NCBI GenBank assembly: GCA_030248065.1
Contig: JASAMV010002688.1
Coordinates: 160,877-224,876 of the forward strand
Direction of reading: 5' to 3'
Length of the DNA: 64,000 nucleotides
Origin: Rhynchonema sp. JSB1_4
Taxonomy: Eukaryota; Nematoda; Chromadorea; Monhysterida; Xyalidae
Shown piece after piece: positions 18,901 to 33,900 of this stretch (within the stretch, counting starts at the first letter, position 1; every line of letters starts with the position of its first letter). The position numbers and the translations under genes were made by a program. The notes beneath the pieces were generated by a model, which ran no database searches, was not told the origin of the DNA, and was given only the letters and a program-made list of their open reading frames with translations.

Positions 18901-21900
18901 AAGTGTAATTGCACAGAATCCATGGAAACACCGGATACTGGTTGAGGTCGTTGTAAGTGCGACCTGCATGCAGGCGAAGCGTACATATTTGCTGAGATAA
19001 TGCCGATTCGTCAAACCGCAGGGTGTCCAAACGTAAACTACGTAATTTGGCACCAAGCCAACAGAACACCATATTTGATTATGTGGCGATACCAACCGGC
19101 GATGGTGTTGAGGAACATCAAATAGTCAAAGTTGGATATTTCGCGACGCTGCCATTTCTGCGGCATATCGGAATGTTTGAACAGTTGACGGGGTGACATC
19201 AGCGACGTTTTCCTGCATAATGACGTAAACAGCAGTAAGTTTCCACACATATTTACCGATGACTTTTTGTCAGCATGTCTAGACGTGTACACCTCCTTGA
19301 AGCAGCTGAACAACCTGATGTGGATTGTGCAACATGATTTCCACCTGTTCAACGACATCCGCACTTCACGAGACGAAATCTAACCACACATGCTGGTAAT
19401 AGAAACCTCAACTCAAACACAACCAATTGTTGTCTGATTGCGTACTCATACCAGGAATCCGCTCTAACTTTCATCCAGCAAGACCAGGCCAACCTGCTCT
19501 GCGGCAATCCATACTTGAATCCGACACCGACACGAGGCAGATGTTTCACCACACTTTTCACGGTGCTGTGATCATCGAACGCAAACATTATGGCGGCTGT
19601 AAAAATGGGTAGGTAAACTTCGGTGTTGCTCAGCCCAGCATGATTATTATAGCTTTGTGCGGGCTGCGGCTGTTGGCAGATTTTTGTTCATCCATATCTT
19701 GTGGACATGGTTGCGGCACTAATGCTAATGCACAAAACCTGTTTTCCCAATGCCTATTGAACAATGTTTGCGTCGGTCCAGCATTGCTCCCCGAAACAGA
19801 AAACAGAGCTGGTAAAAGCACACAAATCTTAGCAAACTACAGCTGCCAAACCCACAATAAACGAAACACTCACTTCTGGACGCCAAGAACAGCTCGAGAG
19901 CCACATTTTGAAGCAGATACCGGCGCAGGAATATGGCACGAATCTCGACGAAATGCCAACGGCCGTGCAAATTGTCGCAGTAGCGCACAACCTGAATATG
20001 GTGTTTGGCTGTTGGGTACACCGCAAGATGGGTATAATGATTTCACATTCGACTGTGCTTGCTTGACGGTTGACGTACATTCGTAATCAGCATTCTTGTT
20101 TAAAATATTTTGGGGTGGGGTCGAAAACCCCGAAAAAAACCCCGAAAAAAAAACGCCGAAAAAAACCCCGAAAAATAAAAACCCCGAAAATAAAACCCCG
20201 AAAACGAAAAACCCCGAAAAAAAAACCCCGAAAACGAAAAACCCCGAAAAACATAAAATGTGTGGAAAACAATTCTTTTGGTTAGAGAAGGGTATTCATG
20301 TCGTTCGTGCACCAAAAAATGGGCACTGGTACAGTTCGGGCACAAGTTAGGTAATTCTCCTTTGTTCATGTCTTCCTGGCTGGCAGCCTAAGCCTAAGCC
20401 TAACCCTGAAAGAAGGCCTATTCCGTTAAACTTTTGTGGATGTTGTCTTCATGTGGCCAGGTCTTCCTGGCTGGCAGCCTAAGCCTAGTAAGCCTAACCC
20501 TGAAGGAAAGCCTGAGCAGTTAGGTTTTTGTGGAAGTTTTCTTCAAATGGACAGGTCTTCCTGGCTGGCAGCCTAAGCCTAAGCCTAACCCTGAAAGAAA
20601 GCCTGTGCAGCTGTACATTTGTGGATGTTTCCTTCATATGGACATGTCTTCCTGGCTGGTAGACTAAGCCTAAGCCTATGAACAAGCCTAAGCCCAAGTC
20701 TAGGTTCAAGTCTGATCCGAAGCCAATTTATCAAGTGTGGGGGTGATGTTTCACTCGTGGGTCACGAGCGACATGAATACCCACCTCTAACAAGATTTTT
20801 TTTCATCCCTGACATTATTTATTTTTCGGGCTTTTTCGTTTTCGGGGTTTTATTTTCGGGGTTTTTCATTTTCGGGGTTTTTTTTCGGGGTTTTCCGTTT
20901 CGGGTTTTTTTCGGGGTTTTTTTTTTCGGGGTTTTCGACGGCCACCATATTTTGATCCAGATCACCCCTCGGTTTTTGATGAGGCTACAGAATTATCCGC
21001 CCTAAACGTGCTTCTGTTTTGTTTCCAGTGACACTGCGCTTGTTTGTGATGCAGTCTCCAAAAGTGATTGGTGTTTCGTGTCGATGAAATTATAAACTGA
21101 CTGGAGTTGCGCTGACCCCCAGATTTTCGTCAATTTTAACATGGTGTCAAGCCACGACAGGCACCAATGATGTATGTACACGCATACCGTTTACATACTG
21201 TCTCAAACTGTGTTCCACAAAAAGAAAACGCAAGAAGAAAAAACTTTGTCCCAAATCTGGTCCGAATGTTTGCAGCCAAGCACCAGGCATATCCGCAATA
21301 AAACAGCAATAAAAGTTATTAGCAACGCACACACTCGTTACAATACGCTAGCAGATCAGACCGGACCTCCTTGCTGTGCATCCCCCAATCTCTATAGGTC
21401 TCTGCCACAAGACAACAGAAATCATCGTCGCTAATAAATGAAGTGCAAGTCAGACGGCACAATAATAATTTGATAAACGGTAGCTGTAAACAAACAAGCC
21501 GAGAGCGTCTGTTTTCTGCGAGGCGGAGGAAACTTTTCTCCGAAACAACAGCTGTCTCATTCCAGTCAAATGGTCATTTTATGACCAATCTCGTACATGT
21601 ATATGTAAGTACATACGTTCGCTCACTACGGGTCCTGGCGTTGTGTACACAATAATCCCCTCTAAAGGTCTCCCTTCACTGCTCGTCGCATGGTGAACTT
21701 TCATATAACGTGAACAGGACAAGTCAGCAACGCTAATCATCAGCCGCAATCACGACCGTGCCTTGTGACCTTTGACAGTGCATAAATGTAACGCGATTGT
21801 ACCCCATGATCTGATGATGATGATAACCATCAATGCATTATGCCCGGTCATGGTGGCAGAAGCGCTCGGTCCACCACCCAACACAGTATAATGCTGGACG

Positions 21901-30900: not shown

Positions 30901-33900
30901 TCCACCGTACATATATTTCTGCATCCAAGGTTGGCAGCATGTGCATAATTTACGAGCGTCGCAGAACGCTTTTATTGGTTTTTCTCGATTCGACTCAAAA
31001 CTAAACGCACGGTATGTACATATTTTCAAACGGACGCGCGCCTAAGTAACTACAAATCACCACACCGCCAAGTTGTAGCTGGCTCGCCAGGGTTGTATCA
31101 TGCATTTTTGATGTTGTATACTAATGGTGTAAAGTGAGAACACTGCGACAAACACTTGATGCAGTGAAACTTCTGTCTTGAAATGTGTAGTGCACGCTAA
31201 GTTCCTCCCGTCAAGGTTAAAAAATGACATCGGAAATTTCATGACAACATTTCACAGCCGTAATTACAAGTCGTTTTTCAAATCAGAGTTTTGAATTCAG
31301 CGCCACACGACGGCCACTAAACGCAATCAAAAACATGTGCAAGCCGTAGTGAACGGCCACGTTCAAAATGAGCGTTTCTCACAAAACTGTATTCAACAGG
31401 ACACTCGTTTGTAGCAGACACAAAACGCGTGTGATGATCGCGTCGCCAGCGATAAATCATTTGCTTCAAAAGATCATCAGGCCCACAACAGGCTTGACGG
31501 CACACAAAACTGTTTGTTTTCCAACTCATTACTGCAGCAAGTTGAATTTTCAGTTATCGGCGAGAATTCGCGAAAAGTGCAGCAAATCTCGGATATTGCA
31601 CAAATTCAGGACAAACAGACGACCATGAAGATCGGATACAGCCATAAAAAGGGATTCTGATAGCCACCACGGAATTACAACACAGTGCAACCCAGTCCCC
31701 GAAAACTCACGGCAGGATCAAGTTGTTTGAAGGCCGGGTCTTCCTCGTCACAATCGAAGAACAATTCGTTGGCAGTTATCGACACCGTGCCGGGCACGGC
31801 CAGACCCGGACACAACAACAGTGCGCGCGTGCTGTAACTCGTCACATCTGAAATCGAAACGCGGACACCAGAATTATGAAGTTGTTGCTCAAACATCACC
31901 AGGTGACCAACCAACAACGTCAAACTACGAATTCCTTAACACCTTGCTCTTCACATCGGGGTGAAACTGCCTAATCTCCAGTTTTTTAAGTTGACAAATC
32001 TATTTCATATGCGAAACGTTGTAATACGGGGCGATTAGGAATCACGATTTCATCGCACAATAATCGAGAAACGATTGCCCAGTCATCGAAACATGATCAT
32101 AATATGAAAGAAAACAAACGCAAAGAAAAAGAAAACGAATGCTGGCCGCACCATTCGAGTCTAGCTCCTCGCCGGCCTCGGACCAGTTGGCGATTTCCGT
32201 GTCATCGACCAAATCAGCCAACATGGACGCGGTCGGCAACTGTCCGGCCGGAATCACCACTTTTTTGGCGATCAAATCAGCCAACAATTGTTCGCGAGCT
32301 GCATCAACGTCGACTTCGGCTGTGTCGTTGCTGTGCGCATCTGAAAACACGGTCGAAACTAAGGGCCCCTGAGCGGGTTAAGGAAGCTTGCAATTTCGAC
32401 CAGTGCAGAAGTTCTCTGCTGTTGGCACGGGAAATCTGGGCACAAATTGTCAAAACTATAGTAGCAAGTCTGAAAGGAGTGCATAGCAGTGTTTTATTTA
32501 GCAATTTTTATAATAATAGAGTAGTCTAAAGAGTACTGATACGGAACCAGTATAATACTCTGACACGCACACACAACGCGAACAATGGCCAAAAAACGTT
32601 CGCATCAAAACTTGGACCAATGAAGAACTGACAGAAAATTGTGTAGAGTGGGCACAAGCAGTGGTGTCGTTAGGCGGGGGTTGGGGGGGGGGGTTACCCC
32701 CCTGGTATGGGGTGTGGGAACTCGGCCGGGGGTATGGGGTATGGGAAATTTTTCACTTTTGGAACAAGCACCCCTAAGAAATGACTTTTTGACCCCGAGT
32801 AGTACCAAAATTGACCATTTTTCGTCCAAAAATGTCAAAAATCGCTTGCTGCCGCAAGAAAACTCTGTATTAAGCACTTTTTGACCAATATTTGGCACTT
32901 TTAGAAGATTTTAGGGGTCATTTTTTCAAAACTTCCACCCTCGGGTATGGGAAATTTTTGAGTTTTTGGAGAAACCCCCCTGGTATGGGAAATTTTTGAT
33001 TTTTGGGGGTATGTATGGGAAATTTCCCGAAAATTGGGCTGGGTATGGGAAAATTTCGATTTCTCAACGACACCACTGGGCACAAGGCAGTCACCTTTCG
33101 CCTTCAGGGTTGCCTCCGGATGCGATCCACCAAACGGATTCGGCACGAAGCGTTTGCGTCGCCGTGAATCGTCCTCCCAGACATCGAGTTTCCAGTACGT
33201 TTTGCTGTAAAATTTTGTTGATTCACTGACCGAAATATTCTGATACCACAATGTGCGAAACGTTTCAATAAAGTGTCATTGATGGCGACGCATGTGCGTG
33301 CATCCAGGAATATGGCCCACTGTCTCACATGCACATCTCTTTTCCAAACGTTTCGAGAATGAGAGCCTCCGAGTGTGCAATTTGCATGCAAATGCAACTG
33401 CAATGCGATAATCCACAATCCAGCCATGCCCGTGCCCGCACGCACCGTTTGGTGGCCGCCTGCGCCCAGGCACCGTTCGGACTCTGCAATATGTTCCTGA
33501 TCTTGTCATTGGTGCGGCTGGCGATGGCGTGGTCGCGCCGTCGGGCGGCCGTGATCAGATGGTCGCACGTTCGTTCCTCCTCCTTGCGGCCGAACAGCGT
33601 TTCGGCACAAACCGCCTCGAACTCGGCGTGCTTGCTTACGTCCTCCGCACGCAGCCGGTTGAGGATGAAATCGGCCTCGTTGGCCACGCGCAGGATGTGA
33701 TCGCGCGTGGCGTGCGCCATCAGCCGACCTGCGTATGAAGAGGGCATTGGCTTTGTGTGCACCCACTTGAGGATGACACTTGTACTTGCAGGCTCACTAC
33801 AACCACGATGTAGGTGACTGTTTCGTTTGCATTGACCGTTGATGTAAAAATCAGGGATAAAAGTCGTTGTCGAATGTGTTTACACGTTGGCTAATGAATT

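What the first reader, a model, noticed from the sequence alone, without database searches (positions are those of the whole stretch)
19992..31710. mab-21 nested antisense in the PH-domain intron of neurobeachin
Seen: a complete mab-21 gene on the plus strand lies wholly within intron 36 of the minus-strand neurobeachin gene, between the codons for QLDPA and [10 protein letters not shown]. Known: human MAB21L1 lies antisense in an NBEA intron and MAB21L2 antisense in an LRBA intron. Inference: the nesting predates the NBEA/LRBA duplication and has been held together since early animals, most likely because mab-21 control elements lie in the host gene. The invertebrate copy has introns while the vertebrate copies do not, so the vertebrate intronless form may be derived.
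Basis: partly seen in the sequence, partly recalled or inferred. Interest (0 to 1): 0.88.

Follow-up and report, generated by a model that had tools for sequence, protein, structure and literature searches.

The report
Mab-21 gene nested in neurobeachin intron
In this nematode genome the developmental gene mab-21 sits backwards inside an intron of the neurobeachin gene, an arrangement already published for animals from worms to humans, so this is a clean extra example rather than a discovery.

Summary
A complete four-exon mab-21 (+ strand, 26805-28963, 367 aa) lies inside one minus-strand neurobeachin intron, exactly 19992-31710 (11,719 bp, phase 0), which cuts the PH_BEACH domain. Guest and host trees both group the window with the sampled Rhabditida and leave Trichinella outside, so this is a nematode.

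The main inference, nesting older than the NBEA/LRBA duplication, is already published: PMC1784063 (2007), Tsang et al. 2009 (seen only as a citation), and PMC4994411, which reports mab-21 in the largest sel-2 intron in all nematode clades.

I add one position test. The four host exons after the intron (118+103+116+113 nt) total exactly 450 nt, in frame. A published human deletion upstream of MAB21L2 removes four LRBA exons, 150 amino acids in frame, from the PH and BEACH domains. This fits the same intron position in human LRBA; NBEA was not tested.

Two inferences weaken. Nematostella mab-21 is also intronless, so vertebrate intronlessness need not be derived. Enhancers in host introns are shown in vertebrates only, and Pristionchus and Drosophila have un-nested the pair. 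Verdict: already known.

The parts
19992..31710 (-). neurobeachin host intron that holds mab-21; 11,719 bp, phase 0, inside the PH_BEACH domain; largest gap between the host coding blocks I listed
   Evidence: splice sites; domain; next largest gap 3,532 bp
26805..26999 (+). mab-21 coding exon 1 (ATG)
27455..27900 (+). mab-21 coding exon 2
   Evidence: genome search
28189..28475 (+). mab-21 coding exon 3
28788..28963 (+). mab-21 coding exon 4 (TGA at 28961-28963)
31711..31842 (-). host exon A, homologous part; ends ...KQLDPA; its 5' edge is not fixed
19874..19991 (-). host exon B, 118 nt, starts [10 protein letters not shown]
19494..19596 (-). host exon C, 103 nt
19097..19212 (-). host exon D, 116 nt
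18851..18963 (-). host exon E, 113 nt, ends ...FRDLSK; exons B-E total 450 nt, phase 0 to phase 0
8992..51217 (-). extent of neurobeachin coding blocks found by homology (N-terminus may extend further)
   Evidence: tblastn with P0121, P0122, P0127
20120..20942 (.). repeat element with terminal inverted repeats inside the host intron, 128 bp from host exon B

Best explanation
This is the nematode orthologue of the ancient animal nested pair mab-21 / neurobeachin (MAB21L1 in NBEA, MAB21L2 in LRBA, mab-21 in sel-2). mab-21 is transcribed from its own promoter, antisense within the PH-domain intron of the host, and the host transcript splices it out. SHOWN here: both coding sequences are intact where resolved, each gene tree gives the same nematode placement, and the intron is phase 0 inside the PH domain. 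INFERRED: the arrangement descends unbroken from the common ancestor of nematodes and vertebrates. INFERRED with less certainty: it persists because mab-21 control elements are spread through host introns, as shown in vertebrates, and because losing the intron would destroy the guest.
For: Exact intron and guest gene. Orthology: MAB21L1 E 7.5e-153 against 4.6e-29 for the next solved relative; host exons match LRBA/NBEA. Mab-21 tree of 39 rows: window in a 13-row set at 100/97 with 10 named Rhabditida and 2 unnamed rows, Trichinella and Trichuris outside. Neurobeachin tree of 18 rows: window with 8 rows (7 named Rhabditida, 1 unnamed) at SH-aLRT 99, Trichinella outside. Position: exons B-E = 450 nt, in frame, against a human deletion of 4 LRBA exons, 150 aa in frame, next to MAB21L2. 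Published nesting. Enhancers in vertebrate host introns. Haemonchus contortus mab-21 and neurobeachin carry consecutive locus tags V3C99_002631 and V3C99_002630 with the same longest-contig length.
Against: Nesting is dispensable: mab-21 has left the sel-2 intron in two Pristionchus species and lies about 800 kb from neurobeachin in Drosophila. No regulatory evidence in this window. The intron carries a recent-looking repeat 128 bp from host exon B, so it is not frozen sequence.
Confidence: 0.85

Rival explanations
1. Ancient nesting kept by inertia: a gene inside an intron cannot be removed by intron loss and rarely moves out, so no shared regulation is needed.
For: Loss of nesting is tolerated in Pristionchus, where the authors call the antisense arrangement not essential, and in Drosophila. 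Opposite-strand nesting is common: 567 pairs in C. elegans. The intron tolerates insertion of a repeat near a splice site.
Against: In vertebrates, deletion or targeting of elements in host introns lowers the guest or harms the eye, and targeting CE14 leaves the host mRNA unchanged.
Confidence: 0.35
2. Independent nesting: mab-21 entered the neurobeachin intron separately in nematodes and in vertebrates.
For: None found; guests can move, as in Pristionchus.
Against: Published nesting in the metazoan taxa studied except Drosophila, same antisense orientation, and an exon pattern that fits the same host intron in LRBA.
Confidence: 0.03
3. Artefact: a pseudogene copy or a misassembly placed mab-21 in the host intron.
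For: The intron holds a dispersed repeat and poly(C) tracts near 24.5 kb, where assemblies can break.
Against: All 4 mab-21 protein matches found in the 204 Mb assembly are these four exons, the frame is intact and the splice sites are canonical, and the same nesting is published for nematodes.
Confidence: 0.03

Closest known systems
mab-21 in sel-2, nematodes (PMC4994411; section 12 read)
   Same: Same guest, same host, antisense, in the largest host intron.
   Different: Another, unnamed species; here with exact splice coordinates. The paper's intron position by codon was not seen.
MAB21L1 in NBEA and MAB21L2 in LRBA, vertebrates (PMC1784063, PMC9681113, PMC11511899; passages)
   Same: Same guest family on the opposite strand in an intron of the same host family; LRBA exon count and length after the intron fit.
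   Different: Vertebrate guests have no coding introns, the nematode guest has three; vertebrates have two pairs, this assembly shows one mab-21.
ceh-10 in polq-1, C. elegans (PMC12274878; passages)
   Same: Opposite-strand nested developmental gene in an unrelated host; a works-alike only.
   Different: Unrelated genes. There the nested gene induces a short host transcript in neurons; untested for mab-21 and neurobeachin.

Membership tests
Mab21 - Lrba/Nbea nested gene pair | Guest is a mab-21 / MAB21L1-2 orthologue | tested here: met
   MAB21L1 E 7.5e-153, cGAS-like receptor 4.6e-29; both Mab-21 Pfam domains; tree
Mab21 - Lrba/Nbea nested gene pair | Host is neurobeachin/LRBA | tested here: met
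   1t77 and 1mi1; blocks along nematode neurobeachins; tree
Mab21 - Lrba/Nbea nested gene pair | Guest wholly within one host intron, opposite strand | tested here: met
   19992-31710 minus; 26805-28963 plus
Mab21 - Lrba/Nbea nested gene pair | Same host intron (codon and phase) as in human LRBA | tested here: inconclusive
   Agrees: 4 exons, 450 nt in frame here against 4 exons, 150 aa in the human deletion; human exon coordinates not seen
Mab21 - Lrba/Nbea nested gene pair | Same host intron as in human NBEA | not testable with these tools
   no human gene coordinates available
Mab21 - Lrba/Nbea nested gene pair | Host introns contain guest enhancers (vertebrates) | not testable with these tools
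   no related genome or expression data for this species

The most novel reading that the evidence does not exclude
The guest has pinned its host: the mab-21-bearing PH-domain intron (same codon, phase 0) and the four exons after it (118/103/116/113 nt) have been frozen since before nematodes and vertebrates split, because an intron that carries a gene cannot be lost. If so, guest-bearing introns are fossils of ancestral gene structure even in lineages with high intron turnover.
Probability: 0.45. Interest if true: 0.4.

Novelty: already known. Interest (0 to 1): 0.22.

Why it matters
The pair is a long-lived nested arrangement of animals and ties a developmental gene (eye disease gene in humans) to sequences inside another gene. 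A further nematode genome with exact splice coordinates makes the shared-intron claim testable at codon level. It does not change the published picture.

Tried and rejected
Naming the species by COX1: contig C2636 carries a clear COX1, but the best relative was an unnamed protein at 76%, and the named rows among the 120 listed were at 62-65%, mostly arthropods with two Heterakis rows at 64%; dropped. Spliced-leader search (RF00198): no match, and the tool says that this does not show absence. Stray animal contigs with mab-21 in the prokaryote and viral collections: 84 and 48 pattern matches, no relative in either. My first exon-2 query was in the wrong frame and found nothing; redone with the spliced protein. 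LRBA variants at c.6363/c.6364: 0 papers. PMC8471443, PMC6433893, PMC1779573 and PMC10732462 gave nothing on the host-intron position.

Considered and rejected: independent insertion, pseudogene or assembly artefact (see rivals); 'vertebrate intronless mab-21 is derived' as a conclusion, because Nematostella is reported intronless.

Full report
What is there. The window is contig C1630:160877-224876 of a 204 Mb, 5,747-contig assembly. On the plus strand a complete mab-21 is encoded by exons 26805-26999, 27455-27900, 28189-28475 and 28788-28963, with introns of phase 0, 2 and 1, 367 amino acids and no internal stop. Its best solved relative is MAB21L1 (5eog, E 7.5e-153); the next is a cGAS-like receptor at 4.6e-29. 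Pfam finds both Mab-21 domains. A protein search of the assembly gives 4 matches, which are these four exons, and the Mab-21 Pfam search gives 1 match; the tool scores only its best candidates, so single copy is what that search can show.

On the minus strand, neurobeachin coding blocks run from about 51.2 kb to 8,992. The intron that holds mab-21 is exactly 19992-31710, 11,719 bp, donor GTGAGT, acceptor TTCAG, phase 0. The joined flanking exons align to LRBA (1t77) and NBEA (1mi1). The intron falls after residue 52 of that segment, inside PH_BEACH (residues 17-111); BEACH begins at residue 144. It is the largest gap between 48 host blocks that I listed; the next is 3,532 bp (a few block edges in that list are approximate). 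mab-21 has 6,813 bp of intron before its ATG and 2,747 bp after its stop.

Whose genome. A mab-21 tree of 39 rows puts the window in a 13-row set (100/97) with 10 named rows that I know as Rhabditida, 2 unnamed rows and itself; Trichinella and Trichuris lie outside. A neurobeachin tree of 18 rows puts it with 8 rows (7 named Rhabditida, 1 unnamed; SH-aLRT 99) and leaves two Trichinella rows on the side of the arthropods (quick method, no bootstrap, and the window row is an approximate concatenation). Both genes tell the same history, as expected of vertical descent. The animal is a nematode outside the sampled Rhabditida. No tardigrade, nematomorph or priapulid row bears a name in these trees, so those phyla were not tested by name. 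COX1 did not name the species.

Prior art. The Fig. S10 legend of PMC1784063 (2007; [quoted passage not shown] It adds that Nematostella and vertebrate coding sequences lack introns while fly, C. elegans, Ciona and sea urchin have them.

Position test. I had no human gene coordinates. [quoted passage not shown] In the window the four exons after the host intron are 118, 103, 116 and 113 nt, together exactly 450 nt, phase 0 to phase 0, from inside PH_BEACH to inside BEACH. LRBA 1t77 aligns over that stretch without a gap. Of the three four-exon runs that exons B-G allow, C-F is 473 nt, out of frame, and D-G is 542 nt as I first set it or 543 nt with the canonical donor one base on, which would be in frame but 181 amino acids; only B-E gives 450. 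Runs that start with exon A were not tested, because its 5' edge is not fixed. The simplest reading is that the human exons are the same four and that MAB21L2 lies in the homologous intron. The zebrafish guide printed for lrba exon 40 translates in one frame as EVFMAN, which matches ALEVFMAN of NBEA 1mi1 opposite ALELFLAS in exon B. Limits: I did not see which LRBA exons were deleted; an undeleted exon between MAB21L2 and the deletion is not excluded by the text; NBEA is untested.

Mechanism. Vertebrate data support guest control elements in host introns: the deletion above, its zebrafish model, and targeting of CE14 in Xenopus, which lowers mab21l2 but not lrba mRNA. A preprint describes a cell-selective enhancer-like element near MAB21L1 (PMC10557686, passages). 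For nematodes I found no such evidence, and Pristionchus shows that nesting is dispensable. C. elegans has 567 opposite-strand nested pairs, and that paper names neither sel-2 nor mab-21 in its main text (PMC12274878). So the configuration alone is common; what is unusual is its age, and that is published.

Indirect support from names. Haemonchus contortus mab-21 (V3C99_002631) and neurobeachin (V3C99_002630) have consecutive tags and the same longest-contig length.

Within the intron an element of about 820 bp with terminal inverted repeats lies at about 20120-20942, 128 bp from host exon B. The genome search scored 40 of 1,430 candidates; one is the window itself and 39 are other copies at 94-97% identity. 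So the intron accepts insertions close to a splice site.

Verdict. Observation confirmed.

Noticed in passing
20120-20942: Repeat element of about 820 bp with terminal inverted repeats built of AAAACCCCGAAAA-like units; 39 other copies at 94-97% identity among 40 scored of 1,430 candidates in the genome. MITE-like by its look.
   Followed up: partly
24461-24656: Poly(C) tracts inside the host intron; a poly(G)-coded stretch also shows near 37.8-38.2 kb in the minus-strand translations. Natural tract or assembly artefact is unknown.
   Followed up: no
about 32900-33100, 39690-40040, 40040-40290: The same unusual reading frame ([26 protein letters not shown]) appears at three places on the minus strand, so a dispersed repeat lies in other neurobeachin introns (seen by eye).
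   Followed up: no
61084-61151: A tRNA gene on the plus strand, the only Rfam match at gathering score in the window.
   Followed up: no
253-639 (+), 2044-2292 and 3790-4017 (-), 62296-62667 (+): Neighbouring genes: an Arf-family GTPase, a C2-domain protein and a trypsin-like protease (Pfam).
   Followed up: partly
L002 (own genome contig C2636): Mitochondrial stretch with a COX1 read by code 5; best relative an unnamed protein at 76%, so the species or its close kin may lack a named COX1 record in that database.
   Followed up: partly
P0017 and P0124 (Steinernema carpocapsae proteins): mab-21 and neurobeachin have non-consecutive locus tags on a contig of the same length: a possible further loss of nesting, or only unordered tags.
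   Followed up: no
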